Part shown: positions 35,824-51,621 of the stretch, in pieces
How the letters are laid out: each line of letters begins with the position of its first letter
How positions within the stretch are numbered: the stretch's first letter is position 1
Source: Sinorhizobium meliloti 4H41
GTDB lineage: Bacteria; Pseudomonadota; Alphaproteobacteria; Rhizobiales; Rhizobiaceae
NCBI RefSeq assembly: GCF_000375585.1
Contig: NZ_AQWP01000005.1
Coordinates: 248,001-312,000 of the forward strand
Direction: 5' to 3'
Length of the DNA: 64,000 nt
Made by a program: the position numbers and the translations under genes
Notes under the pieces: generated by a model
Database searches by the model: none
Told to the model about the DNA's origin: nothing
Seen by the model: only the letters and a program-made list of their open reading frames with translations

Positions 35824-37149
35824 TCAGCCGAGCCATCCCATCGACGTTCCGATCCAAATGATCGGCGCCGTCACCAGTATGCTCAATACGACGCGAATAT
35901 ACCAGATCACCAGAAGATCGCGAAAGCTGAGCGGGATCGAGGTCGCCAGCACGCAAGGGACCGAGGCGGACAGGAACAGAACCTGGCTGACCGATACCAC
36001 CGCGGCCAGGAACTTCACCTCGGGCACTGCCTCCTTGAGCAGGATGGCGGGCAGGAACATCTCGGCGAGACCGGAGGCGAGCGCCTTTGCCGCCTGCATC
36101 GGCTGGCCGAATTGCGCGAGCCAGGTGAAGGGGTAGAGCGTCAGGCCGAGAATGTCGAAGATCGGCGTGAACTTGGCGGCGAGAAGTCCGATGAGCCCGA
36201 CTGCCATGATGCTCGGCAGGATCATCGCCGCCATGCGCAGTCCATCCAGGAAGCTTTCGCGCAGCAGCGCCGGTAGGCTCTTGGCGATTGCCGCCTGCTC
36301 AAGGCCGGTCTCCGCGGCGACGCTCAGGCGGCTGCGCCCCGGGGGCAACGGCTGGTCCCGATCGCCCTCGTGCGCAAGGCGGGAAAGCGGCCAGATCCGG
36401 GCGGTGATGGCAGAAACGATGAACGTGACGACGAGCGTCGTCCAGAAGTAGAAATTCCAGATATCCATGAGCCCCAGCGTCTTCGCCACGATGATCATGA
36501 ACGTGGCCGACACGGTGGAAAAGCCTGTCGCGATGATCGCCGCTTCGCGCACCGTGTACTTGCCTTCGCGGAACACGCGGTCGGTGATGAGGAGCGCAAG
36601 GGAGTAGCTGCCGACGAAGGAAGCGACGGCGTCGATGGCGGACCAGCCCGGCGTACGCCAGATCGGCCGCATCACGGGCTGGACGAGCACGCCGGTGAAT
36701 TCGAGAAGGCCGTAGCCGATCAGAAAGGCGAGTGCCAAAGCGCCGATGGGTACGATCAGCCCGACCGACAGCACCAGCTTATCGAAGAGGAAGGGCAGCA
36801 TGTCGGGCGCGAAGAGGATCGCGGGCCCTATGCCGGCGAGATAAAGGCCGGCAAGCACCAGTCCGAGGACGCGCAGGACCGAAAAGACGGCGTCGGTCGT
36901 CGTCTTGCGCCAGGTCCCCTTCACGATGGGTCCGAAGGCGCCGTACGCCATCAGCAGCAATACGAAGCCGATCGCCACCGGCCGTGCATGGGTCGATATG
37001 GCCGTTGCCGCATGGTCGAGCAGGATCGTCGACTTGCCGGCGATTTCGACCGGCACGAAGAACAGAAATATGCCGATGAGGCTGAAAAGAATGAGCCGCA
37101 AGGCTGCGCCGCCGCGCGAGCCCCCTGCCTCGGTGGTGATGTGCGTCAT
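35824..37149 (-). CDS. YjiH-family membrane transporter
   Basis: The 441-residue integral membrane protein has about ten hydrophobic helices and matches the YjiH/nucleoside-recognition (Gate) type (segments GSYSLALLITDRVFREGKYTVREAA and SRPVLFLSAS-type helices). Family members are often found in hut clusters and are suspected to move histidine or related compounds, without direct proof. It lies between hutD and the HutH-like gene, with a 31-bp gap to the latter. The block is therefore likely a single operon from hutV to hutD. Confidence 0.85.
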   Translation of the reverse strand: MTHITTEAGGSRGGAALRLILFSLIGIFLFFVPVEIAGKSTILLDHAATAISTHARPVAIGFVLLLMAYGAFGPIVKGTWRKTTTDAVFSVLRVLGLVLAGLYLAGIGPAILFAPDMLPFLFDKLVLSVGLIVPIGALALAFLIGYGLLEFTGVLVQPVMRPIWRTPGWSAIDAVASFVGSYSLALLITDRVFREGKYTVREAAIIATGFSTVSATFMIIVAKTLGLMDIWNFYFWTTLVVTFIVSAITARIWPLSRLAHEGDRDQPLPPGRSRLSVAAETGLEQAAIAKSLPALLRESFLDGLRMAAMILPSIMAVGLIGLLAAKFTPIFDILGLTLYPFTWLAQFGQPMQAAKALASGLAEMFLPAILLKEAVPEVKFLAAVVSVSQVLFLSASVPCVLATSIPLSFRDLLVIWYIRVVLSILVTAPIIWIGTSMGWLG

Positions 37150-37180
37150 GTCGTCTCCTCCCTTCCCGTTCAGAGCGGGG

Positions 37181-38680
37181 TTACAGGCTGGCCTTCGACG
37201 GCGCGGCTCGCATCAACAGCCGCATCCGGTCGAAGTCTTCGTTCATCGGGCGATCGTCGCGATAGGCGGGAATCTCCGAGCGTATGCGCCCGTAAAGGGC
37301 AGCAGTGCGTTGCGCCTTGCCAGGTCCCTGCGGCTGCAGCTCATAGGCCTGAGCGGACGCAAGCAGTTCGATCGCCAGGATCCGCTCGAGATTGTCGACG
37401 ATCGAGAGCGCTTTCCAGGCCGCCGGTGTCGCGTGGGTGAGCATGTCTTCCTGAAGCGCGGAGGTGATGCCGCCGTCGAGGCTGGCCGGCGCTGCGAGCC
37501 GCCGGTTCTCCGCCACGAGCGCGGCAGCCGTGTACTGCGCGATCATGAAACCCGAGCACACGCCGCTATCGCCGGCGAGGAAGGCAGGCAAACCGCTCAC
37601 CAGAGGGTTCACCAGCCGGTCGATGCGGCGCTCGGAAATTGCTGCGACCTCCGCCACCGCGACGGCGAGGCTGTCCATTGCGAGGCCGAGCGCGGCACCG
37701 ACGGCATGGGCCTGCGAATGCACCTCGGGTGACTCCGGCGCACCGGCAACGGCCGGGTTGTCGGTAACGCTTGCAAGTTCGCGATCGACGATTTCGGCTA
37801 CCTGGCCGAAGGCGTCGCGGGCGGCGCCATGCACCTGCGGCACGGCCCTGAGACTCAGCGGATCCTGGGTGCGGGTGCCGGCCGTACCTGCCAGCATCGG
37901 GCTATCCGCCAGCCAGTCGCGCAGGCTTTCGCCGACTGCGTTCAGGCCAGGGGATCGGCGCAGAGCCAAGGGCAATTCGGCAAAGGCATTGGCCTGGCTG
38001 CCGAGGTTTTCGTAAGTCATCGCCGCGGCTGCATCGGCCCAGGCGAAGAGCCTTTCCGTGCGCGCGAGCGCCAGTGCCGCCAGACCGGTGGCGCACGGGG
38101 TTCCGTTGACGAGGCTGAGACCTTCTTTCGCTTCGAGCCGCAACGGCACAAGCCCCAGACGGGCGAGGGCATCGCCGCCGCTCAGTCTTTCAGTCCCCAG
38201 CATGGCCGAGCCGTGACCGATCAGCACGAGGCCGATCGCGGCGGCGTGGGTCAGATATCCAACCGAACCACGCGACGGAATGAGAGGGATGATGTCGGCG
38301 TTGAGCAGCGCCAAGAGTGTTTCGACCGTCTCGATCCGCACGCCGGAATAGCCGTGGGCGAAGTTGGCTATCTGTGCTGCCATGACGGCCCGGGCTTCCA
38401 CTCGACCTAGCGGATCTCCGACGCCGCAAGCGTGGCTCAGGATGATGTTGCGCGAGAGCGCCTGCTGGTTCTCACGGCTGATGACGACATCGCAAAGGGC
38501 GCCGACGCCGGTGTTGATGCCGTAGCCACGGATGCCGCGGTCCACCAATGCGTCGACGATCCGGCGGGCATGGGCGATCCGCCGGCGCGCAGGCTCCGAC
38601 AGGTCGAGGCGGACGCCCTCGGCGATCGAAGCGATCTCGCGCCAGGTAAGCGGCCCATCGATCGAAATCATCTCACCCAT
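37181..38680 (-). CDS. HutH-like protein (aromatic amino-acid lyase family) lacking the MIO triad
   Basis: The 499-residue HAL/PAL-family protein has YGINTG near residue 53 and LSHACG with the usual His. LVNGTP carries the conserved Asn, QDPLSLRAVPQ holds the conserved Arg, and QEDM the conserved Glu. The segment that should read GSVGASGDLAP reads GSVGYLTHAA (residues 138-147). The ASG triad, which cyclises to the MIO electrophile, is absent, apparently through loss of three residues. The GGNFH loop is also altered (VHSQAHAVGA). The start at 38680 overlaps the hutV stop by 8 bp. A classical ammonia-lyase activity is therefore unlikely; an altered or binding role is possible. Confidence 0.9.
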   Translation of the reverse strand: MGEMISIDGPLTWREIASIAEGVRLDLSEPARRRIAHARRIVDALVDRGIRGYGINTGVGALCDVVISRENQQALSRNIILSHACGVGDPLGRVEARAVMAAQIANFAHGYSGVRIETVETLLALLNADIIPLIPSRGSVGYLTHAAAIGLVLIGHGSAMLGTERLSGGDALARLGLVPLRLEAKEGLSLVNGTPCATGLAALALARTERLFAWADAAAAMTYENLGSQANAFAELPLALRRSPGLNAVGESLRDWLADSPMLAGTAGTRTQDPLSLRAVPQVHGAARDAFGQVAEIVDRELASVTDNPAVAGAPESPEVHSQAHAVGAALGLAMDSLAVAVAEVAAISERRIDRLVNPLVSGLPAFLAGDSGVCSGFMIAQYTAAALVAENRRLAAPASLDGGITSALQEDMLTHATPAAWKALSIVDNLERILAIELLASAQAYELQPQGPGKAQRTAALYGRIRSEIPAYRDDRPMNEDFDRMRLLMRAAPSKASL

Positions 38681-39500
38681 GGGTCTCCGGCCTTTCGTGC
38701 CTGCGCTGGACGAACCGGGCAACATAGTCGTTGGCAGGGTTGTCGAGGATGTCGCCCGGTGTGCCGACCTGAACGACCTGACCGTCCTTCAGGATCGCGA
38801 TCTCCGACCCGATGCGTAGGGCCTCGTCGAGATCATGGGTGATGAAGACGATGGTCTTTGCAAGATTCTGCTGGAGTTGCAGCAATTGGTCCTGCATGTC
38901 GCCGCGGATCAGCGGGTCGAGGGCACTGAAAGCCTCGTCCATCAGGATCACATCGGTGTCGGCGGCGAGCGCTCGTGCAAGGCCGACGCGCTGCTTCATG
39001 CCGCCCGAGAGCTGATGGGGAAATTTCGCGTCGTAGCCGGACAGGCCGACCGTTTCGATCCATTTTATGCCGATTTCGCGGGCATCGTCCTTCGACACGC
39101 CGCGCACGCGCTGTCCGTAGACGACATTCTGGAGCACGGTCCGGTGCGGCATCAGGGCAAAGCTCTGAAAGACCATGCTGACGCGCCGCATGCGGAAGGC
39201 ACGCAGCGCCTTCGCACCCAGGTCGAGGATGTTGTCGCCGTCGAAAAGGACCTCGCCGCTCGTTGGTTCTATCAGCCGGTTGAGGTGGCGCACCAGCGTC
39301 GACTTGCCCGATCCGGAAAGCCCCATGATCACGAAGATCTTTCCGGCGCCGATCTTCAGGCTGACATCGTTGAGGCCCACGCTGCAGCCGGACCTCGCCA
39401 GGATATCGGCCTTATCGAGACCGTCCTTGAGCATGGCGAGCGCCTTCTTGGCGTCATGCCCGAATATCTTGTAGACGTTCCGGATCTCTATATCAGCCAT
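38673..39500 (-). CDS. hutV: HutV, ATPase of histidine/betaine ABC transporter
   Basis: The 275-residue ABC ATPase is of the glycine-betaine/proline class. Walker A GLSGSGKST (about 59-67), the signature LSGGMKQR (about 158-165) and Walker B VILMDEAFSALDP are all present. In Sinorhizobium, HutXWV transports histidine and also proline and betaines (established). The start at 39500 overlaps the permease stop by 8 bp, and the stop overlaps the start of the HutH-like gene by 8 bp, so the three are translationally coupled. Confidence 0.93.
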   Translation of the reverse strand: MADIEIRNVYKIFGHDAKKALAMLKDGLDKADILARSGCSVGLNDVSLKIGAGKIFVIMGLSGSGKSTLVRHLNRLIEPTSGEVLFDGDNILDLGAKALRAFRMRRVSMVFQSFALMPHRTVLQNVVYGQRVRGVSKDDAREIGIKWIETVGLSGYDAKFPHQLSGGMKQRVGLARALAADTDVILMDEAFSALDPLIRGDMQDQLLQLQQNLAKTIVFITHDLDEALRIGSEIAILKDGQVVQVGTPGDILDNPANDYVARFVQRRHERPETHG

Positions 39501-40350
39501 TGCGGGCGTCCTCCGTCCGGGGCTTGCCGAAGCCTTGCGTGATGCGGTCGAGCACGATCGCGAGAATGACGATGCCGATGCCGGCCTCGAGGCCCTTGCC
39601 GACGTCGAGCGTCTGAATGCCGTTGAGCACCTGTTCGCCGAGGCCGCGCGCGCCGATCATCGAGGCGACGACGACCATCGACAGCGCCATCATGATCGTC
39701 TGGTTGAGGCCGGCCATGATCGTCGGCGTCGCAAGGGGCAGTTCGACGCCGAAGAGGATCTGTCGCGGACTGCCGCCGAACGCCGTCGCAGCTTCGACGA
39801 CTTCCGCGTCGACCTGGCGGATGCCGAGATCGGTGAGCCGGATCAGCGGCGGGACGGCGTAGATGATGGTCGCGAGGATAGCGGGCACCTTGCCGAGCCC
39901 GAAGAGCATCAGCGCCGGGATGAGATAGACGAAGCTCGGCATGGTCTGCATGACATCGAGCACCGGCAGAGTGATGTTGCGGACGGTGCGGCTCTTCGCG
40001 ACGAGAATCCCCATGGGCACGCCGATCACTACCGAGACGATGGTCGCCATCAGCATCAGCGCGAGCGTCTGCATCGTCAGGTCCCAGAGTCCGAGGACGC
40101 CGACGGCGACCAGCAACGCGCCCACCGCCAGCGTCAGCGACCAGCGCCGCGAGCTCCGCCAGGCAAGCGCCATGAAGGCGAGAATGACGAGCCACCAGGG
40201 CAGGCCGCGCAGGATCCATTCAATGAACAGAACCGCCTTCAGGATGACGGCGCTGATCGCCTTGAAGACCCAGCCGTAATTGGTGACGAGCGCCTGGATG
40301 AAATCGTTCACCGGCGCGCGGATCGAGAGATTGAGAGAGTCCGGAAACAT
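39493..40350 (-). CDS. hutW: HutW, permease of histidine/betaine ABC transporter
   Basis: The 285-residue integral membrane protein has five or six helices and the EAA-type loop of binding-protein-dependent permeases (EVVEAATAFGGSPRQILFGVELPLA, about 195-220). It belongs to the ProW/OpuAB class that pairs with HutV and HutX. It lies 137 bp after hutX, with a strong intercistronic hairpin in the gap, and overlaps hutV by 8 bp. Confidence 0.93.
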   Translation of the reverse strand: MFPDSLNLSIRAPVNDFIQALVTNYGWVFKAISAVILKAVLFIEWILRGLPWWLVILAFMALAWRSSRRWSLTLAVGALLVAVGVLGLWDLTMQTLALMLMATIVSVVIGVPMGILVAKSRTVRNITLPVLDVMQTMPSFVYLIPALMLFGLGKVPAILATIIYAVPPLIRLTDLGIRQVDAEVVEAATAFGGSPRQILFGVELPLATPTIMAGLNQTIMMALSMVVVASMIGARGLGEQVLNGIQTLDVGKGLEAGIGIVILAIVLDRITQGFGKPRTEDARNG

Positions 40351-40435
40351 CGGATATCGTTCCTTGTTCAGGGCGGCGGCGCGAAGCCAAGACCCTCCTG
40401 GCCCGGGGAAGCAGCCCTTTCCCTACCGTCGCAAC

Positions 40436-40459
40436 GCGCCCCGCCTGGTGGCGGGGCGC
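40436..40459 (-). terminator. Intercistronic hairpin between hutX and hutW
   Basis: A perfect 10-bp GC stem (40436-40445 with 40450-40459) with a 4-nt loop lies between the binding-protein gene and the permease gene. Such hairpins stabilise or partially terminate transcripts so that the binding protein is made in excess. There is no T-tract. Confidence 0.65.
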
Positions 40460-40487
40460 TGGCGACTGCCGGCCGGAAAGGCCGCTT

Positions 40488-41522
40488 TTACTTGAGACCG
40501 GCTTCGATCTTGCCGCGCGCCTCTTCCGAGACCCACTTGCTCCAGACGTCGCCCTTGGTTTTCAGGAATTCGGCGGCAGCCGCCGTGGCGTCGACCTTGT
40601 TGTCGGCCATATAGGCGAGGCTGGCGTTGACCTCCTCGAGCGGGAATGTTGCCTTTTCCAGAATCTCGACGATTTCCGGCGCTTCCGAAGCGAAGGTGCT
40701 GTTCACGCCATAGGCCACGTCGACGGAAGGGAAGGCGCAGCCTTCGTCACGTTTGCCGTTGGCGCTGCTCAGTTCTTTCCAGCAGGCTTCGTTATAGGCC
40801 GGCTCTTCGAGCTGGATCAGCTTGAATTTCCCCATGATCGCGGTCGGCGACCAGTAATAGAAGAGGATAGGCTCACCCTGGAGATAGGCGGAGGTGATCG
40901 CCGCATCCAGCGCCGTTCCCGTCCCCGGCCGGAAGTTCACATAGGCCTCATCGAGCTTGTAGGCCTCGAGCTTGGCGGTGCTCACGCCCTCGCAGGTCCA
41001 ACCGGAGGGGCAGTTGAGGAACCGGCCTTTGGATGGCTCCTCCGGATCGGCGAAAATCTCGGCGATCTTCGGATCGGTAAGCTGTGATACGCTTTTCAGG
41101 TCCGGCGCCTTGGCTTCGATATTGCGAGCGGGATCGCCGTGGACGACATAGTCGGGCACGAACCAGCCTTCGCTGGCACCTACGAAGGTCTTGCCGACGG
41201 CCACCACCTTCTTTTCTTCGACCGCCTTGTTCCAGACGTCCGAACGGCCGAGCCATTCCTCGGCGAAAATCTGCACGTCGTTGTTGGCGGTTGCCTGTTC
41301 GAGAGTCACGGAATTGCCGGGGATCGAGTCGACCTGGCAGTCGTATCCCTTGGCAAGAATCGTCTTCATGACCTCGGTGATGAAGGCGCCGCTTTCCCAG
41401 TCGATGCCGGCGAAGGTCACGGTCTTGCCGTCGCCGCAATAGGAAGCATTGGCGCCGCTGGCGGAAGCCGCCAGCATCAGGCCGGCGGCAGCGAAGGTGA
41501 GTCTCATTGTGCTGATCGACAT
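40488..41522 (-). CDS. hutX: HutX, periplasmic binding protein of histidine/betaine ABC transporter
   Basis: The 344-residue exported protein has a signal peptide of about 1-26 (ending SGANA) and a substrate-binding domain of the glycine-betaine/ProX (OpuAC) type (CGDGKTVTFAGIDWESGAF, then YYWSPTAIMGKF). It delivers histidine, and in Sinorhizobium also proline or betaine, to HutWV. GGGGGA gives a better spacing to the ATG at 41522 than to the one at 41528. It is preceded by hutF on the same strand after a short gap. Confidence 0.92.
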   Translation of the reverse strand: MSISTMRLTFAAAGLMLAASASGANASYCGDGKTVTFAGIDWESGAFITEVMKTILAKGYDCQVDSIPGNSVTLEQATANNDVQIFAEEWLGRSDVWNKAVEEKKVVAVGKTFVGASEGWFVPDYVVHGDPARNIEAKAPDLKSVSQLTDPKIAEIFADPEEPSKGRFLNCPSGWTCEGVSTAKLEAYKLDEAYVNFRPGTGTALDAAITSAYLQGEPILFYYWSPTAIMGKFKLIQLEEPAYNEACWKELSSANGKRDEGCAFPSVDVAYGVNSTFASEAPEIVEILEKATFPLEEVNASLAYMADNKVDATAAAAEFLKTKGDVWSKWVSEEARGKIEAGLK

Positions 41523-41556
41523 GCGCATTCCCCCATTTTTAATCGCGATTCGATTG

Positions 41557-42942
41557 CTATTTGAGCTTGTTCAGAACGCACGCGAAGGCGCGATCGATGT
41601 CTTCCTCCCGGTCATGCCGTCCGTCGCGGATCTTCCATTCGCCAGCGATCATGACGTCGCGAACCGTATCCCCGCCGAGTGCGAAGAGCCAGCGGTCGAG
41701 AATCTGGTTGCCGCTTGCCGCGGCGATATAGGGATTGGATCCGTCGAGAACGACGAAGTCGGCCATCGCGCCGACGCGGATGCCCGGCTCTTCCATTCCG
41801 GCGGCATGTCCGGCCGCTTGGGCGCCGCCGGCAAGCGCCGCATCGAAGATTGTCCTGCCGACGGAGGCGCCGGGCGCGGCGAGCCGGTTGCGCCTGCGGT
41901 CGCGCAGGCGCTGCCCGTATTCGAGGAGCCGAAGCTCTTCCGCGACGCTCGTCGCGACATGGCTGTCGGTTCCGACCCCGAAACGTCCGCCTGCGGCAAG
42001 AAAATCGACCGCGGGAAAAATTCCGTCGCCGAGATTGGCCTCGGTCGCGGGGCAAAGGCCGGCGACCGCGCCCGACCGGGCGAGCCGGTTCGTCTCGTCG
42101 GGCGTCATGTGCGTCGCGTGGATCGCGCACCAGCGCTCGTCCACCGGCATGTTGTCGAGAAGCCATTCGACCGGGCGCCGGCCGCTCCAGGCCAGGCAAT
42201 CCTCCACTTCGCGGGGCTGCTCGGCGACATGGATGTGGATGGGGCCGGTGAGGGGCGATGATTCCAGGATCGCGCGCATTTCCTCCGGCGTCGCCGCCCG
42301 CAACGAATGGATCGCATAGCCAAGCCTCGCGCCTGTCGCATTGCAAGCGGGCGAGAGACGATCGAGCAGCGCGAGGAAGCCGTCGGGATCATTGAGGAAG
42401 GGACGCTGCCCCGCGCTCGGCGCAGCTCCGCCGAAATTGGCATGGGCGTAGAAGACCGGCAGATGGGTTAGGGCGATACCGCTCGTCTGCGCGGCCCTTA
42501 GTATCCGCAGCGACATTTCCGCCGGGTCCGCGTAAGGCGTGCCGTCGAGCTGATGGTGGAGGTAGTGGAATTCGACGACACGGCCGAAGCCGCCTTTCAG
42601 CATTTCCACATAGAGCTTGGCGGCGATTGCCTCGAGATCGTCCGGGTCGACCAGGCCGACGGTGCGATACATCTCCTCGCGCCAGGTCCAGAAGCTGTCG
42701 TCGCCTGTTCCGGCCACTTCCGCAAGGCCGGCCATCGCACGCTGGAAGGCGTGGGAATGCAGGTTCGCCATCGCCGGCACGACGGGTCCGGACAGATGCT
42801 CGTCGCCCGGTGCCTTCGATTGCCCTGCTTCCACCGCGAGAATGCGTCCCGCCGCGTCGACGGAGATCGCGACGTCCTTGGACCAACCGGTCGGCAGCAG
42901 CGCCTGTTCGGCAAACAGTCGATGAGCGGACAAAGCTGTCAT
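41557..42942 (-). CDS. hutF: HutF, formimidoylglutamate deiminase
   Basis: The 461-residue amidohydrolase has metal-ligand motifs NLHSHAFQR (about 59-67), HVAEQP, HATHM and GTDSHVA (Asp). It has the length and signature of formimidoylglutamate deiminases (HutF). It converts N-formimidoyl-L-glutamate to N-formyl-L-glutamate and ammonia in the five-step histidine pathway, which also needs HutU, HutI and HutG; none of those is in the window. It is divergent from hutC across 128 bp. Confidence 0.93.
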   Translation of the reverse strand: MTALSAHRLFAEQALLPTGWSKDVAISVDAAGRILAVEAGQSKAPGDEHLSGPVVPAMANLHSHAFQRAMAGLAEVAGTGDDSFWTWREEMYRTVGLVDPDDLEAIAAKLYVEMLKGGFGRVVEFHYLHHQLDGTPYADPAEMSLRILRAAQTSGIALTHLPVFYAHANFGGAAPSAGQRPFLNDPDGFLALLDRLSPACNATGARLGYAIHSLRAATPEEMRAILESSPLTGPIHIHVAEQPREVEDCLAWSGRRPVEWLLDNMPVDERWCAIHATHMTPDETNRLARSGAVAGLCPATEANLGDGIFPAVDFLAAGGRFGVGTDSHVATSVAEELRLLEYGQRLRDRRRNRLAAPGASVGRTIFDAALAGGAQAAGHAAGMEEPGIRVGAMADFVVLDGSNPYIAAASGNQILDRWLFALGGDTVRDVMIAGEWKIRDGRHDREEDIDRAFACVLNKLK

Positions 42943-43844: not shown

Positions 43845-46775
43845 ATGATGGAAGACGAATTGCTGAAGCGCCGCACGCGGCTTGCGAGACCGGACGTGTC
43901 GATCGAAGAGGCGCAGGCGATCCTGGCTCAACATTACGGCCTTTCCGGCTATCTTACGGAACTCGGCAGCCAGCAGGACCGCAACTACCGCGTCGACACA
44001 AGCGAGGGACGTTTCGTCCTCAAGATCGCGCGTGCCGAATATGCGCGGGCCGAGATCGAAGCCCAGAATGCCGCTTTGCGGCATGTCGCCACCAGGCCCG
44101 ATGCTCCCAAAGTGCCCGAAGTGATGTCCGCTTTGAGCGGCGAGGAAATCGTTGCCGCATCCGTTCGCGAGGAAACCTATCAGTTCCGGTTGCTCACCTA
44201 TCTCGACGGCACGCCTCTGACGCGCCGCAGGCACCTGGCCGTGGAAACCGTGGCGGCACTTGGCGATCTTGCGGGCCGGTTGGCCGTCGCACTCAGGGAT
44301 TTCGATCACCCGGGGCTCGAGCGGGAGCTGCAATGGGACCTCAGAAGGGCGGGGCCGGTCGCGCTTCACCTGCTTTCGGCCATGAGCGACATCGATCTGC
44401 GCCAGCGCATTGCCGAGGCGATGGTCGGCGCCATGCGCAGGGTTCAGCCGCTGATGCCGGAGCTGCGCCTGCAGGCGATCCATCAGGACGTCACCGACGA
44501 CAATGTCGTGAGCCGCGCGAACAGGAGCGGGCGCCTCATCCCCGACGGCGTCATCGATTTCGGCGACGTGCTGAAAGGATGGGTGGTCGCCGATCTTGCC
44601 GTTACCTGCGCATCGCTGCTGCATCACTCGGACGGAGATCCCTTCCATATCCTGCCGGCGGTGAAGGCGTTCCATGCCGTCTGCCCTTTAACGGATGCCG
44701 AATTGAAGGCGCTCTGGCCGTTGATCGTCGCGCGTGCCTGCGTTCTCGTGGCGAGCACGGCGCAGCAGCTCGAGGTCGATCCGGAAAATGCCTATGTCGA
44801 AGGCAATGCCGCGCATGAGCGGGAAATCTTCGACGTTGCCGTTTCGGTGCCTCTCGAACTCATGGAGCATGCGATCGGAGAGGCCGTGGGGAGGGCTCCG
44901 CAGCTTTCTCCGCCCGAGATGGGCGGTCGGCTGCTGCCCGAGCTCGACCTTTCGGAAATAGGCATCGTCGATCTTTCCTCGCTCGGCCCGCACCTTCCTG
45001 CCGATCGCTGGCATTACGAGGACACCGAAGCCCTGCTCCTGCAATCGGCGGCGCGTGCGGCCGGTGCCGCGGCGACGCGCTATGGCGAGTACCGGCTGAC
45101 GGAAACGAGGCTCCTGCAGGCAAGCGCCCCCCGGACATTCGCCCTGCACGTGGATTTATGCCTGCATGGGCAGACTGCCGTGCACGCGCCTTTTGCCGGC
45201 CGGCTCCACCAGCGCGGCGGCAAGCTGATCTTCTCGGGCGAAGGTCTCCATCTCCATCTTTACGGCGTGGAGGCAGCCGAACTCGCCGAGGACGCGTTCG
45301 AGGCGGGCGCACGGATCGGCGTGGTCCCCGGCGATCCGTCGGCCCTGGGGTTCATGCGCGTCCAGCTTTGCACGACGCCGGAGGTGGACCCGCCCGCCTT
45401 CGCTGCGTCACATCAGGCGGAGGCATGGTGCCGGCTTTGCCCGTCGCCCGCACCGATCCTGGGCTTCGATTGCGATGCGGCCTTGCCGGACGCGGCCGGG
45501 CTCCTCGAGCGCCGCCGACGGCACTATGCCCGGCCGCAGAAGAACTATTACCGCACGCCGCCGCAGATCGAGCGCGGCTGGAAGGAGCATCTCTTCGACG
45601 TCGAAGGGCGCGCTTATCTCGATATGGTCAACAACGTCACGCTCGTCGGCCACGGGCATCCGCGCCTGTCGGCTGCGGTCGGGCGGCAATGGTCGCTGCT
45701 CAACACCAATTCGCGGTTCCACTATGCTGCCGTGACGGAGTTTTCCGAGCGGCTTGCGGCGCTCGCGCCGGAAGGTCTCGACACTGTCTTTCTGGTCAAC
45801 AGCGGATCCGAGGCGAACGATCTCGCCATCCGGCTCGCCTGGGCCCATTCCGGAGCGCGCAACATGATCTCGCTGCTGGAGGCCTATCACGGCTGGACGG
45901 TCGCGAGCGACGCCGTTTCCACCTCGATCGCGGACAATCCGCAGGCGCTGACGACGCGTCCCGACTGGGTCCATCCCGTCGTCTCGCCGAACACCTATCG
46001 AGGCCCGTTCCGCGGGGAGGGTTCGACGGGCGACTATGTCGACGCCGTGTCTCGAAAGCTCGCGGAACTGGACGAGAAAGGCGGGAAGCTCGCCGGTTTC
46101 ATCGCAGAACCGGTCTACGGCAATGCCGGCGGCATTCCGTTGCCTTCCGGCTATCTGGAAGCGGTCTACGCCATGGTCCGCGAGAGAAGCGGCGTCTGCA
46201 TCGCCGACGAGGTGCAGGTCGGCTACGGGCGGCTCGGTCATCATTTCTGGGGTTTCGAGCAACAGGGCGTCGTGCCCGATATCATCACCGTCGCCAAGGG
46301 CATGGGCAACGGCCATCCGCTGGGCGCGGTCATCACGCGGCGCGAGATTGCCGATGCGCTGGAGAAGGAAGGCTATTTCTTCTCTTCCGCCGGCGGCAGC
46401 CCCGTGAGTTCCGTCGTCGGCTTGACCGTCCTCGACATTCTTCACGACGACGCCCTGCAGGAAAATGCCCGCGCGGTGGGCACCCATCTCAAGAGTCGGC
46501 TCGAGGCGCTCGGGGACCGGTTTCCTCTCGTCGGCGCCGTTCACGGCATGGGGCTTTACCTGGGCGTGGAATTCGTCCGCGACCGCGAAACGCTCGAACC
46601 GGCCACCGAGGAAACCGCGGCGATCTGCGACCGCCTTCTCGATCTCGGCATCGTCATGCAGCCGACCGGAGACCATCTGAACGTCCTGAAGATCAAACCG
46701 CCGCTTTGCCTCGCCCGGGAGAGCGCCGATTTCTTCGCCGATATGCTGGCCAGGGTGCTCGAAGAGGGATGGTAG
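43845..46775 (+). CDS. Trimodular kinase - degenerate M23-like - class III aminotransferase/phospho-lyase
   Basis: The protein has 976 residues. The N-terminal phosphotransferase domain (about 20-330) is of the APH/hydroxylysine-kinase type, with catalytic HQD (213-215) and VIDFGDV. A middle region (about 425-540) aligns with the M23 peptidase module of the paralogue at 47982-51035, but the His-x-His position reads FMRVQL (503-508) and the first His ligand is also lost, so it cannot bind zinc as in M23. The C-terminal class III domain (about 560-976) has NSGSEAND and the PLP lysine (Lys818 in VAKGMGNGHP). Related human proteins are the hydroxylysine kinase and the phospho-lyases PHYKPL and ETNPPL. 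It has no signal peptide. AAGGA precedes the ATG. Confidence 0.88.
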   Translation: MMEDELLKRRTRLARPDVSIEEAQAILAQHYGLSGYLTELGSQQDRNYRVDTSEGRFVLKIARAEYARAEIEAQNAALRHVATRPDAPKVPEVMSALSGEEIVAASVREETYQFRLLTYLDGTPLTRRRHLAVETVAALGDLAGRLAVALRDFDHPGLERELQWDLRRAGPVALHLLSAMSDIDLRQRIAEAMVGAMRRVQPLMPELRLQAIHQDVTDDNVVSRANRSGRLIPDGVIDFGDVLKGWVVADLAVTCASLLHHSDGDPFHILPAVKAFHAVCPLTDAELKALWPLIVARACVLVASTAQQLEVDPENAYVEGNAAHEREIFDVAVSVPLELMEHAIGEAVGRAPQLSPPEMGGRLLPELDLSEIGIVDLSSLGPHLPADRWHYEDTEALLLQSAARAAGAAATRYGEYRLTETRLLQASAPRTFALHVDLCLHGQTAVHAPFAGRLHQRGGKLIFSGEGLHLHLYGVEAAELAEDAFEAGARIGVVPGDPSALGFMRVQLCTTPEVDPPAFAASHQAEAWCRLCPSPAPILGFDCDAALPDAAGLLERRRRHYARPQKNYYRTPPQIERGWKEHLFDVEGRAYLDMVNNVTLVGHGHPRLSAAVGRQWSLLNTNSRFHYAAVTEFSERLAALAPEGLDTVFLVNSGSEANDLAIRLAWAHSGARNMISLLEAYHGWTVASDAVSTSIADNPQALTTRPDWVHPVVSPNTYRGPFRGEGSTGDYVDAVSRKLAELDEKGGKLAGFIAEPVYGNAGGIPLPSGYLEAVYAMVRERSGVCIADEVQVGYGRLGHHFWGFEQQGVVPDIITVAKGMGNGHPLGAVITRREIADALEKEGYFFSSAGGSPVSSVVGLTVLDILHDDALQENARAVGTHLKSRLEALGDRFPLVGAVHGMGLYLGVEFVRDRETLEPATEETAAICDRLLDLGIVMQPTGDHLNVLKIKPPLCLARESADFFADMLARVLEEGW

Positions 46776-46871: not shown

Positions 46872-47882
46872 TCAGCGGACCGGCGGCGCGTAGATCAGGC
46901 CGCCGTGGTTCCAGAGCCTGTTGAGGCCGCGATCGATCCTGAGCGCGCTCTCCTTGCCGAGGTGACGCTCGAAGATCTCACCGTAGTTGCCGACCGCAGC
47001 CACCGTCTGGTAGGCCCATTTCGGATCGAGCCCGAGCGCCTTTCCGGCTTCGTTGTCGATGCCGAGGAAGCGCTTTTGTGCGGCGGTTCCGCTTTCGAGG
47101 AGCGAAGCGGCATTGTCCCGGGTGATGCCCAGCTCCTCTGCCTCTATCATCGCGAAGAGCGTCCAGCGAACGACCTTGAACCATTGATCGTCGCCCTGGC
47201 GGACGGCAGGGCCGAGCGGCTCCTTGGAAATGACTTCCGGCAGGATGACGAAGCGGTCAGGATCATTGAGCGTCAGCCGCTGCGAATAGAGGGCGGAGGC
47301 ATCGGTGGAATAGACGTCGCAGCGGCCGGAATTGAAGGCCTGGATCGTCTGGTCCGCCTTTTCGAAGGCGATCACCTGATACTCGATCCTGTTGGCGCTG
47401 AAATAGTCCGCCATGTTCTGTTCGGTCGTGGTGCCGGTCTCCGTGCAGACGGAGGCGCCCGAGAGCTCCTTGACGCTCTTCACGCCGATATCGTTGCGCA
47501 CCATGAAGGCCTGACCGTCATAATAGTTCACGCCGACGAAGCTCATGCCCAGATCCGTGTCGCGCGAAAGCGTCCAGGTGGTCTGGCGCGAAAGCAGGTC
47601 GACCTCGCCGGATTGGAGCGCGGTGAAGCGCTCCTTGGTCGAAAGCGGCACATATTTCACCTTCTCCGGACTGCCAAGGGTGGCGGCCGCGACCGCACGG
47701 CAGAAATCGATGTCGAAGCCGGACCACTCGCCCTTATCGTCCGGGGCGGAGAAGCCGAGGACGCCCTGACTCACGCCGCAACGCAGCTCGCCGCGCTGCT
47801 TGACGACGTCGAGGGTTGCGGCCTGCGCCGTCGTGCCGGCAAGAAACGCCGTCGCAAAGAGTGCCAAAATGCCGGTTTTCAT
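46872..47882 (-). CDS. Polar amino-acid ABC transporter binding protein (AapJ-type)
   Basis: The 336-residue exported protein has a signal peptide of about 1-22 (ending AQA), then TLDVVKQRGELRCGVSQG and GFDIDFCRAVAAA, typical of the AapJ/BztA general L-amino-acid binding proteins. No permease or ATPase gene is next to it, so it must use a transporter encoded elsewhere or act as an alternative receptor. GGAGGAGGACAG precedes the ATG at 47882. It is the second gene of the minus-strand transcript led by the trimodular gene 99 bp upstream and probably supplies its substrate. Confidence 0.92.
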   Translation of the reverse strand: MKTGILALFATAFLAGTTAQAATLDVVKQRGELRCGVSQGVLGFSAPDDKGEWSGFDIDFCRAVAAATLGSPEKVKYVPLSTKERFTALQSGEVDLLSRQTTWTLSRDTDLGMSFVGVNYYDGQAFMVRNDIGVKSVKELSGASVCTETGTTTEQNMADYFSANRIEYQVIAFEKADQTIQAFNSGRCDVYSTDASALYSQRLTLNDPDRFVILPEVISKEPLGPAVRQGDDQWFKVVRWTLFAMIEAEELGITRDNAASLLESGTAAQKRFLGIDNEAGKALGLDPKWAYQTVAAVGNYGEIFERHLGKESALRIDRGLNRLWNHGGLIYAPPVR

Positions 47883-47981
47883 CGTCCTGTCCTCCTCCGT
47901 TATAAGACGCAATCATTGAGCTCCAGGACGCGCGTCGCGCCCGGAGTGGTCTGGTTCTTCGGTGATACCGCTACCTCGTAA

Positions 47982-50900
47982 TTATCCGGCTCGCGCCAGC
48001 ACGGCCTCGAACGTTTCCTCGAGCACGGCGATCAGGTGATCCGCGTCGCGCTTCGAAAAGATCATCGGCGGTCGCATTTTCAGGACGTTGTCATGTGGGC
48101 CCTCAGTGCCCATCAGCACGCCGCGCTGGCGGGCTCCGTTCGCGACGGCCCGGGCGATCTCCGTCGCCGGCGCCCTGGTTCTGCGGTCGCTGACGAGCTC
48201 GATGCCGAGGAACAGGCCGAGGCCGCGAACGTCGCCGATGACCTCGTAGCGCTCCTGCATGGTCCGGAAGGCGGCGAGAAGATGATTGCCGATATCGAGC
48301 GCATTGCGGCGCAGGTCCTCGCCTTCGATGACGTCGAGCACCGCGAGACCGACGGCGCAGGACACCGGGTTGCCGCCGAAGGTGTTGAAATACTCCATGC
48401 CGTTGTCGAACGAGGCCGCGATCTCACGCGTCGTGACGACTGCGGCGAGTGGATGACCATTGCCGATCGGCTTGCCCATGGTGACGATATCAGGAACGAC
48501 GCCTTGCGTCTCGAAGGCCCACCAATGGCTGCCGACCCGGCCGAAGCCGACCTGCACCTCGTCGGCGATGCAGACGCCGCCGGCCTCCCTGATCATGCGG
48601 TAGACCTCGTTGAGGTAGCCATCCGGCAGAAACACCTGGCCTGCGACGCTCGGAATGGATTCGGCGAGGAAGAAACCCGGCGCTTCGTCTCGGGCGCGCA
48701 TCGCCGCGATCAGCTCGGCCACGTCTTCGGCGAAGCGCCTGCCGTGTTCCTCCGGCGGCCAGGCGGCCGGCGCGTGGTAACTGTCCGGAACGGCCGCCAC
48801 GTGAACATGCGGCTTCTGGCCCTTTCCGCCCTTGCGGCGGAACTTGTATGCGCTGAGATCGATCAGCTCCTGCGTCGTACCGTGATAGGCCCAGTCCAAC
48901 ACGACGGCGTTTTCCTTGCCCGTATGCGCCCGCATCAGGCGCAGGGCGAGACCGTTGGCTTCGGAGCCGCTGTTGGCGAAGGCGGCGACGGCGAGTTCCT
49001 TCGGCATCGTGGCCGTCAGCCGCTCGGCATAGGCGACGATGTTGTCGTGCAGGTAGCGCGTGTTGGTGTTGAGCGTCCCTGCCTGCCGGGCCAATGCGTC
49101 CACCACGGCCGGATGGGCGTGGCCGATGTGGCAGACATTGTTGAAGCAGTCGAGATAGGCGCGGCCGCGATCGTCGATCAGCCAGACGCCTTCGCCGCGC
49201 ACGAACTTGATCGGCTTCTCGTAGGAGATCGACAGGTTCGGCAGCAGCAGCTCTTTCCGTTGCCTGATGATGTCCTCGTGGGGGCGGCCGCTCCGGTCGT
49301 AGAATTCCGGCGCGATGCCGGCAAATGTGCTCGCGTCGGGGAAGAGCTCCGCCCAGACGTCGAGGTAGCGCTCCTCGCCGACGCCGGGGATGTCCGTCGC
49401 TGCGAGACTTGTGTCGGTGGAGATCTGCAGATGCAGATGCGGCGCCCAGCCGCCGTTTTCTTCCGGAGCGCCCATTTCACCGACAAGCGCGCCGGCCTCC
49501 AGCCGGTCGCCGGCCTTCAGCCGGCTGACGGCCTCATGGGCAAGATGGCCCCATAGCGTCAGGAAAGGCGGGCAGCCGTCCGGTTCATGGCGCAGAGCGA
49601 TAAGGCAACCGTATCCGAGCGGATCCTTCTCGATCTCGACGCTCGCGACGGTGGCTGCAAGCGGCGTATGGACCTTGGTGCCCGCCGCCATGAAGAGATC
49701 AAGACCCAGATGGCGCGTGCGGCGCGTCTCTTCGATCATGCGGGAGACGAACATCTCGCCCGAATAGACGGTGCGGGCCTCACCCCAGGGGCCGATGCCG
49801 AGCTCGACGCCGGCCCTGCGGCATTGCTCTTCCCAGACCGATTGCGCGTCATGCGGCCGGCCGGCCGCCGAACTGACGGTCATCGGATGCGCCGGATCGC
49901 CGTAGGGGACGAGAGCGGCCGGATAAGCCGCGGCTGGACGATCGAGAAGCGGCAGGAGGCTCTTGCGATTTCCGACGATCCAGGAGGCGACGGCGCGGGC
50001 TCCGGCTACTGTCTCGAAACCGCAGGCCTTTCTCAGGATCGCCGTTGAGAAACGCGGGTTCATCGCATCGAGTTTGCGCAGCAGCGCCCAGGCCGGCCTT
50101 TCGCTGATCGCGAGATAAGGGTTGTCGGCGGTGTGCGCCCGGCGTGATGCAGAGATCGTCACCGAGGTGACCAGCCGCATGGCGATCAGGTCGAAGAGGA
50201 GATCGACTTCTTCTTCGAGGAGCGGGTATTCGGCATGGTAGCCGTTGGCGATCGCAGCCGCAGCGCCGATCGGATCGGGGTGGTCGAGGCCGGCATAGGC
50301 GGCGGCGATCGCGACTTCGGCGATGACGGGCGCGTAGAGGGCGTCGCCAAAGTCGATGATGCCGGAAATGCGGTCGTGGTCGTCTTCGTCGATGAGGACG
50401 TTCCAGTCGTTTGCGTCGTTATGGATGACGGCGGAGCGCAGCATCGGGAGCCGCGGGGCGACCCGCTCGTCGAAGCGGTCGAGAAAGCGCTGGAGAAGAG
50501 CACGATCCTGGAGATCGGCCACATATGCGAGCCGTCCGGCAGAACGTCCGGCATTGCGGATGTCCCAGTCGAGATCGCGCAGTGCGCCCGGATGCATGAA
50601 GCCTTTGAGCGAGGCGTCGAAGCGGCCGAGCATCCGGCCGAGGGAGTGAAGTGCTCCATCGCTCCGATCGGACTGTGCGAGCGGAGTTCCCGGAACCCAG
50701 GTGACCAGCCGCAATCGATGGACGGTCCCGCGCCTCGTGGTCGTCGCGAGGTTCTCGCCGGACAGAGTCGGTTGCAAATGCGGAACCGGCAGGTCTCCTG
50801 CATTTTCGCCGGCGTGCTTCAGCAGCGCTGTCTGGAAGTCGCTTTCGATTTCCGGTTCGGCGCCGTTGACGATCTTCAGAATGTAGCAGCGGCCATCACG

Positions 50901-51035
50901 GGTATTGACCTTGAAGTTCTGGTCCCGCTCGCTGTCCAGCGGCTGAAGTGACCCATCCAGGCCGAAGTGCTGCGCGAGGAGGGCTTGCGCTTCCTCGATC
51001 GTGAAATCCGGCGTCGTTTTCAGCATGTCGTTCAT
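47982..51035 (-). CDS. Trimodular kinase - M23 peptidase-like - class III aminotransferase/phospho-lyase
   Basis: The protein has 1017 residues. The N-terminal APH/hydroxylysine-kinase-like domain (about 10-340) has catalytic HND (205-207) and IIDFGDA. A middle M23/LytM module (about 425-560) has both metal motifs, HLGLD (HxxxD, near 441) and HLHLQI (HxH, near 533). The C-terminal class III PLP domain (about 590-1017) has ANSGSEANG and the Schiff-base lysine (about Lys855 in [11 protein letters not shown]). It has no signal peptide, so the M23 module is in the cytoplasm. I infer phosphorylation then elimination of an amino alcohol by analogy with hydroxylysine kinase/PHYKPL. The ATG at 51035 begins the ordered sequence; the next Met is three codons on. 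Confidence 0.88.
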
Positions 51036-51115
51036 GGAGACCCCCGCTCTTGTCACGAGAGTTGCACGCCCGTTCGGCATGTGCATCCGGCATTTCGCCG
51101 GTTGCACCGGCACTT

Positions 51116-51128
51116 TGGTTATTATAAC
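51116..51128. promoter_or_regulatory. Perfect palindrome between the trimodular gene and the Lrp/AsnC gene
   Basis: GGTTATTATAACC is a 13-bp perfect palindrome with a central T, located in the divergent gap (51036-51195). Lrp/AsnC proteins bind short AT-rich inverted repeats, so it is a good candidate operator for both genes. It also resembles the -10 region of a promoter. Confidence 0.55.
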
Positions 51129-51195
51129 CGTCATCTTGCCGGCGCTACTCGACAGCCGCCCGGCAGTCCCTCTGGCCGGCCGCAGGAGGCAGGAT

Positions 51196-51621
51196 ATCGA
51201 CGCGACAGACCGAACGATCCTCAGCATACTGAGCCGCGAGGCGCGTATTCCCATGAAGTCGCTTGCCGGGCGTATCGGATTGTCGCGCAGCGCGACGGCC
51301 GAGCGTGTCGCGCGGCTGGAGAAGGCCGGCGTCATTCGCGGCTATCGCGCCGACATCGGCCAGCTGGAGGAGGGGGAGATCGAGGCTTTCCTGCTGGTGA
51401 CGCTGAAGCGGACGCCCTCGCTCGGCGTGCTCGATCGGCTAGCCGGGTTTTCCTCCGTCAGACGCGTTTTCTCGGTCAGCGGTCAGCTTGATCTCATCGT
51501 GGAAGTGAAGGTCGCTTCGATCAACGCGCTGAACGAGCTGCGCAACGAAGTCGCGCAGCTCGACAATGTCGAGGATCTGACGACCTCGATCGTGCTGCGC
51601 CGCGATATCGAACGAAGCTGA
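51196..51621 (+). CDS. Lrp/AsnC-family regulator with unusual start
   Basis: The protein is about 141 residues from the ordered N-terminus DATDRTILSIL. The AsnC helix-turn-helix is at about 5-60 (LAGRIGLSRSATAERVARLEKAGVI), with a RAM ligand-binding domain after it. A perfect AGGAGG (51184-51189) stands 6 nt before ATC GAC GCG ACA GAC, where relatives have ATG. Start is therefore either ATC or an upstream TTG (51136, 51115) or ATG (51082), which would translate the palindrome at 51116. It is divergent from the trimodular gene and probably regulates it. Confidence 0.82.
   Translation: MDATDRTILSILSREARIPMKSLAGRIGLSRSATAERVARLEKAGVIRGYRADIGQLEEGEIEAFLLVTLKRTPSLGVLDRLAGFSSVRRVFSVSGQLDLIVEVKVASINALNELRNEVAQLDNVEDLTTSIVLRRDIERS

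What the first reader, a model, noticed from the sequence alone, without database searches (positions are those of the whole stretch)
47982..51035. Single protein fusing a hydroxylysine-kinase-like domain, an M23 peptidase module and a class III phospho-lyase/aminotransferase
Seen: intact kinase motifs (HND at 205-207, IDFGD), intact M23 metal motifs (HLGLD near 441, HLHLQI near 533), a class III PLP lysine near 855, and no signal peptide. Known: hydroxylysine kinase and the lyases PHYKPL/ETNPPL catalyse consecutive steps that phosphorylate an amino alcohol, then eliminate phosphate and ammonia. Inferred: the fusion channels a phosphorylated amino-alcohol intermediate. The zinc-peptidase-like module in the middle of a cytoplasmic enzyme is unexplained; it could release the substrate from a peptide, or act as a binding or assembly domain.
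Basis: partly seen in the sequence, partly recalled or inferred. Interest (0 to 1): 0.75.

Follow-up and report, generated by a model that had tools for sequence, protein, structure and literature searches.

The report
Kinase–peptidase–lyase fusion for amino-alcohol breakdown
One bacterial protein joins a kinase, a zinc-peptidase-like domain and a PLP enzyme; its relatives keep the peptidase residues without exception, and some gene neighbours hint that it consumes hydroxylysine, an amino acid known from collagen.

Summary
The fusion is real: a 1017-aa protein on the minus strand with APH kinase, LytM-fold M23 and class III PLP domains, motifs intact. It is a full-length member of a catalogued but functionally unnamed family, PRK06148/NF004799, in an Ensifer/Sinorhizobium-type genome. 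The lyase domain is 49.8% identical to human ethanolamine-phosphate phospho-lyase, so kinase-then-phospho-lyase chemistry is well supported. The M23 site is kept in 114 of 114 distinct three-domain fusions, over some thirteen named phyla including Thorarchaeota. The inverted paralog beside it (43845-46775) and its kin retain the domain without the site. Context favours 5-hydroxylysine: polar amino-acid binding proteins recur nearby, a second fusion in this genome lies near an alpha-glucosidase-like gene and the genome's only GH42 beta-galactosidase, and three M23-less relatives directly follow a LacZ-type gene. Eleven further loci showed none of these partners. I propose that M23 frees the amino alcohol from an amide-linked form before phosphorylation and elimination; substrate and M23 reaction are inferred, no activity is shown.

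The parts
47982..51035 (-). Three-domain fusion gene, 1017 aa (PRK06148 family)
50220..50948 (-). APH-type kinase domain, residues 30-272, with H205-N-D207 and IDFGD 227-231
   Evidence: motifs
49413..49715 (-). M23/LytM domain, residues 441-541, with H442, D446, H497, H533, H535
48015..49214 (-). Class III PLP (phospho-lyase-type) domain, residues 608-1007, PLP lysine K855
46872..47912 (-). Polar amino-acid ABC substrate-binding protein, next gene downstream of the fusion on the same strand
51001..51621 (+). Divergent Lrp/AsnC-type regulator frame (true start not determined; its 5' part overlaps the start of the fusion)
   Evidence: named Lrp/AsnC in annotated relatives
43845..46775 (+). Paralog PRK06149: kinase and PLP domains, degenerate M23 region at about 44847-45494

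Best explanation
A cytoplasmic three-step catabolic enzyme for a vicinal amino alcohol, most likely 5-hydroxy-L-lysine. (1) The M23 domain, a working zinc hydrolase, cuts an amide bond and frees the amino alcohol from a short peptide or other conjugate (in collagen hydroxylysine precedes glycine, and several M23 enzymes are glycyl endopeptidases; both recalled). (2) The kinase domain phosphorylates the hydroxyl group. (3) The PLP domain eliminates phosphate and ammonia, giving an aldehyde (2-aminoadipate semialdehyde if the substrate is hydroxylysine). In some sister clusters glycosidases would first remove galactose or glucosyl-galactose. Shown: domain identities, fold, invariance of the site, gene neighbours. 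Inferred: the substrate, the M23 reaction, the order of steps. Separate odds: kinase plus phospho-lyase 0.9; hydroxylysine 0.5; M23 catalytic 0.7; M23 frees the substrate from a peptide or amide 0.4. The confidence below is for the whole picture in outline (kinase-lyase on a hydroxylysine-type substrate with a catalytic M23).
For: Lyase 452 bits to ETNPPL 6tor, 348 to phospholyase 5g4i, best other solved class III enzyme 191 bits. M23 residues intact in 114 of 114 distinct fusions; all five lie among the 16 invariant of 240 positions. SBP_bac_3 within 4 kb of 3 of 4 module loci of the own genome, 22 copies in 6.79 Mb. C12 fusion near an MGH1-like glycosidase and the genome's only GH42. LacZ-type gene directly upstream of 3 of 3 M23-less relatives of one clade. 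Kinase-less M23-lyase near an Opp-type transporter (two close relatives, one observation). Glc-alpha-1,2-Gal-hydroxylysine is the collagen unit (PMC8626586, passages).
Against: No activity data. The window locus has no glycosidase; 8 further fusion loci and 3 other M23-less direct fusions showed none of the seven partner queries. Among 90 near neighbours GH42 occurs once, while unrelated families such as topoisomerase I occur three times (25 of 137 families shown). Neighbour counts are not independent by descent. The closest solved enzyme acts on phosphoethanolamine. Split pairs and direct fusions do without M23. The kinase HxD histidine is Tyr in 7 of 115 rows.
Confidence: 0.42

Rival explanations
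1. Same kinase-lyase chemistry, but the substrate is ethanolamine or a small amino alcohol such as 1-amino-2-propanol, and M23 cleaves a conjugate of it.
For: The closest solved relative is ethanolamine-phosphate phospho-lyase; five modules in one genome suggest several substrates.
Against: Polar amino-acid binding proteins, one of them lysine/arginine/ornithine-type by PDB matches, and beta-galactosidases beside the genes do not suit ethanolamine; animal PHYKPL, a sister of ETNPPL, acts on phosphohydroxylysine (title of the 2012 paper, reference list).
Confidence: 0.25
2. The M23 domain is a metal-binding scaffold or sensor that orders the kinase and lyase domains, without catalysis.
For: The paralog group retains the fold without the site; non-enzymatic LytM domains exist among the structural matches.
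Against: All five residues, including the non-ligand-type histidines, are kept in 114 of 114 distinct fusions, more than metal binding alone would need.
Confidence: 0.25
3. An ordinary class III transaminase or other PLP enzyme with unrelated extra domains.
For: Public annotation says 'aminotransferase'.
Against: Far closer to phospho-lyases than to any solved transaminase; the kinase is the recurrent partner, fused or adjacent.
Confidence: 0.05

Closest known systems
NCBIfam NF004799 / PRK06148 ('hypothetical protein', subfamily)
   Same: Full-length match, 1676 bits against a cut-off of 1128, same three-domain architecture
   Different: Nothing in sequence; the family has no assigned function
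NCBIfam NF004800 / PRK06149 ('aminotransferase'), the paralog beside it
   Same: Kinase and PLP domains in the same order with a homologous middle region (hhalign probability 98.1)
   Different: M23 histidines lost
Animal hydroxylysine kinase with PHYKPL / ETNPPL ammoniophospholyases (2012 JBC paper; title seen in reference lists, paper not held)
   Same: Kinase then phospho-lyase; lyase domain 49.8% identical to ETNPPL
   Different: Separate proteins without M23 (recalled); PHYKPL and the kinase could not be compared here
Bacterial phospholyase A1RDF1 (PDB 5g4i)
   Same: Homologous PLP domain, 42.6% identical
   Different: Single-domain chain; falls among the M23-less lyases in the tree
M23/LytM peptidases (lysostaphin, LytM, ShyA)
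   Same: Fold and the HxxxD...H...HxH residues
   Different: Those are cell-wall or secreted enzymes (recalled); sequence similarity is low (one PDB hit, E 0.0013) and here the domain sits inside a metabolic enzyme without a visible signal peptide

Membership tests
NF004799/PRK06148 | Score above the curated cut-off over the full length | tested here: met
   1676.2 bits against 1128, residues 1-1014
Phospho-lyase (ETNPPL/PHYKPL) type of class III PLP enzymes | Sequence closer to characterised phospho-lyases than to transaminases | tested here: met
   452 and 348 bits against 191 for the next solved enzyme
Phospho-lyase (ETNPPL/PHYKPL) type of class III PLP enzymes | Elimination of phosphate and ammonia | not testable with these tools
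   needs an assay
Hydroxylysine kinase (HYKK) | Closest relationship to HYKK rather than other APH kinases, and activity on hydroxylysine | not tested
   No HYKK sequence or model at hand; besides the PRK families the kinase region matched only homoserine kinase models, below cut-off
Peptidase family M23 | Profile match and LytM fold | tested here: met
   46.9 bits against 28.7
Peptidase family M23 | HxxxD and HxH metal ligands plus the catalytic histidine | tested here: met
   H442, D446, H497, H533, H535 present, 114 of 114 distinct fusions
Peptidase family M23 | Zinc-dependent peptide hydrolysis | not testable with these tools
   needs an assay

The most novel reading that the evidence does not exclude
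A cytoplasmic M23 hydrolase dedicated to metabolism: one polypeptide frees hydroxylysine from peptide or amide conjugates, phosphorylates it and eliminates phosphate and ammonia, as the core of an unrecognised prokaryotic pathway for collagen-type hydroxylysine and its galactosyl and glucosyl-galactosyl glycosides, found in many phyla including Asgard archaea; the dead-M23 sister gene beside it would be a division of labour for free substrate.
Probability: 0.25. Interest if true: 0.8.

Novelty: new variant of a known kind. Interest (0 to 1): 0.55.

Why it matters
M23 enzymes are studied mainly as cell-wall hydrolases (recalled); an invariant M23 site inside a cytoplasmic catabolic enzyme points to an untested reaction, testable with one protein and point mutants. 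The gene clusters suggest which soil and marine microbes might consume hydroxylysine glycosides, and would give a function to a family that databases call a hypothetical protein or an aminotransferase.

Tried and rejected
Secreted-enzyme reading: no hydrophobic N-terminal core by eye, no predictor run. Chance M23 match: rejected.

Evolution: the trees drew three M23-less fusions, and the second tree human ETNPPL, inside the M23 clade, which would mean loss of M23 and a fusion ancestry of the animal enzyme. The AU test (46 fusion rows against 26) did not reject the fusions as a clade without them (p 0.625, higher likelihood), so I claim neither; a second test in that call did not finish and was not resumed. 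PRK06149 was placed differently in the two trees.

The model of the paralog's middle region from three sequences failed (pLDDT 31.3) and was not used; the profile comparison stands instead. Ten paper searches listed no title or abstract start on the function of the kinase-M23-lyase fusion; only listings were seen, and three papers were read in passages. The one paper that holds the term PRK06148 was not opened. The 2012 JBC paper was not held; that it noted bacterial kinase/lyase fusions is my recollection. 'Lyase alone' rests on flanks of 1.5 kb and does not prove absence of a kinase. Assigning the substrate from active-site residues was not attempted.

Negative context results: 8 further fusion loci (L204-L211) and 3 M23-less direct fusions of another clade (L212-L214) gave no hit to any of seven partner queries (GH42, LacZ, MGH1, two binding proteins, SDR, Opp-type binding protein). 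The other three M23-less direct fusions (L021, L022, L030) lie on short contigs or at contig ends and were not examined.

Neighbour tally: 90 of 181 neighbour ORFs, from 40 of 48 loci (recount); my printed list was cut at 150, I took mostly the nearest ORF on each side, added some second neighbours by hand and dropped a few overlapping ORFs. The background used assumes 6500 genes. A far-gene control was prepared but not run. One search counts 115 rows because the window protein is in it twice; the recount is 114.

Full report
What is there. The finding lies on the minus strand: an open frame of 1017 codons from 51035 down to 47982. Pfam finds APH kinase (30-272), Peptidase_M23 (441-541) and Aminotran_3 (608-1007), all above cut-off. 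NCBIfam NF004799 (PRK06148, 'hypothetical protein') matches residues 1-1014 with 1676 bits, so the architecture is catalogued but unnamed in function. A second protein in the window, 43845-46775 on the plus strand, is a full-length PRK06149 (NF004800, 'aminotransferase') with kinase and PLP domains but no Pfam M23 match. Between the two lies a polar amino-acid binding-protein gene (46872-47912, minus), next downstream of the fusion on its strand; a regulator frame diverges upstream and is annotated Lrp/AsnC in relatives. Named relatives are Ensifer/Sinorhizobium: a 90% best-segment match in S. medicae, Sinorhizobium sp. K101, C101 and M103 at 98.2% and S. meliloti at 94.9% DNA identity.

The middle domain. 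An AlphaFold2 model of residues 346-585 built on 69 relatives (under 85% identity) has pLDDT 95.1 and pTM 0.92; the 50 Foldseek rows shown are dominated by M23/LytM proteins. By sequence the domain is remote from solved M23s (one PDB hit, E 0.0013). In the 69 sequences mean column identity is 36% and 16 columns are invariant; all five M23 residues (H442, D446, H497, H533, H535) are among them (hypergeometric 7e-7). Over all distinct three-domain fusions in hand, HDHHH is found in 114 of 114 (recounted); 35 of these came only from genome sampling, the window's own two included. A match to the M23 profile was required for entry, so degenerate domains would not be counted there. They exist: in the PRK06149 group the domain is still recognisable (hhalign probability 98.1, E 1e-13, 185 columns), but in three rows the site reads A, D, V, gap, R, and none of the 12 aligned rows shows HxH (by eye). 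So in what I sampled the site is either complete or lost.

Distribution. Over the family cut-off: 9 of 289 genomes of the class, 8 of 349 of the phylum and 6 of 61 of the family, the own genome counted in each. The 47 fusion rows of the tree carry thirteen NCBI phylum names, among them Pseudomonadota, Chloroflexota, Acidobacteriota, Gemmatimonadota, Actinomycetota, Bacteroidota, Bacillota and Candidatus Thorarchaeota. Many are metagenome bins, so single assignments may be wrong. Other arrangements exist: adjacent kinase and lyase genes, direct kinase-lyase fusions without M23, and an M23-lyase without kinase. The own genome alone has five modules: two M23 fusions, the PRK06149 paralog and two split pairs.

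Chemistry. The lyase domain matches human ethanolamine-phosphate phospho-lyase (6tor) with 452 bits and phospholyase 5g4i with 348 bits; the next solved class III enzyme has 191 bits. The 47 fusion lyases are 44.8-57.7% identical to ETNPPL, the 18 lyases with a separate kinase 40.4-44.3%. With an intact kinase attached, phosphorylation followed by elimination of phosphate and ammonia is the straightforward reading; it is inference from family membership.

Substrate. In 84 neighbourhoods compared (80 named loci, three stretches of the own genome and the window) one regulator cluster recurs in 29 and two clusters of polar amino-acid binding proteins in 15 each; the regulator is Lrp/AsnC. In the own genome 22 SBP_bac_3 genes are spread over 6.79 Mb, and 3 of 4 module loci have one within 4 kb (2e-4 if placed at random). 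The split pair on contig C25 is followed by a lysine/arginine/ornithine-type binding protein (just below the model's cut-off) and permease and ATPase frames. The second fusion (C12) lies in a cluster with LacI regulators, an amino-acid binding protein, SDR, sugar binding protein, permeases, an MGH1-like glycoside hydrolase and a GH42 beta-galactosidase; that GH42 is the only one found in the genome. Three rhizobial relatives (L110, L114, L115) share the cluster, and in Defluviimonas (L076) GH42 follows the fusion directly. Three M23-less kinase-lyase genes, from two classes but one clade, each follow a LacZ-type GH2 gene on the same strand with gaps of a few to some 60 bases (Pfam run on two of the three). 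Glc-alpha-1,2-Gal linked to hydroxylysine is the collagen unit (PMC8626586, passages), and the MGH1-like enzyme's best NCBIfam model is glucosylglycerate hydrolase, below cut-off. Amino-acid importers plus alpha-glucosidase-like and beta-galactosidase genes beside a hydroxyl kinase and phospho-lyase fit hydroxylysine and its glycosides better than ethanolamine.

Against this. The window locus has no glycosidase; its left neighbours are a histidine-utilisation-like cluster. Eight further fusion loci and three other M23-less direct fusions gave no hit to any of seven partner queries. Among 90 near neighbours from 40 loci, AsnC-type domains occur 7 times, SBP_bac_3 5 times, GH42 once, and topoisomerase I three times. 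The loci are related by descent, so the counts are not independent.

What M23 may do. Split pairs and direct fusions show that the kinase-lyase chemistry does not need it. Invariance of the whole site argues for catalysis; the simplest use is to free the amino alcohol from an amide or peptide so that the kinase can act. The kinase-less M23-lyase near an Opp-type transporter points the same way but is one observation in two close relatives. A structural or sensing role remains possible, as the dead paralogs show.

Evolution. A single origin of the M23 fusion is compatible with the data, but direction and any link to the animal enzymes stay open.

Verdict. Observation confirmed; interpretation partly supported and sharpened: a catalogued but uncharacterised family with a strictly conserved, unexplained hydrolase site and a testable substrate.

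Noticed in passing
window 43845-46775 (+): Inverted paralog PRK06149 with kinase and PLP motifs but a degenerate M23 site; the same pair of genes lies together in Ensifer adhaerens L18 (L041), S. medicae (L062) and a genome of the same genus (G869).
   Followed up: partly
window 35827-42942 (-): Histidine-utilisation-like cluster: HutF (over cut-off), a HutH-like lyase (just below cut-off) and a choline/betaine-type ABC transporter.
   Followed up: no
L197:7220-9295 (-), L198:6444-8678 (+): M23-lyase proteins without kinase, M23 site intact, near an Opp-type peptide transporter.
   Followed up: partly
L079, L081, L085, L092, L116: Acidobacterial-type fusions with Tyr in place of the kinase HxD histidine; 7 of 115 rows.
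   Followed up: no
L062:9947-13055 (+): In the S. medicae contig the kinase part and the M23-lyase part lie in different frames: frameshift or sequencing error.
   Followed up: no
L011:5056-10482: Own-genome split kinase/lyase pair on C11 near an aldehyde dehydrogenase, a HAD hydrolase and a GntR regulator.
   Followed up: no
L206:6616-8644 (-): One fusion is followed by an L-asparaginase II gene and a class I/II aminotransferase gene.
   Followed up: no
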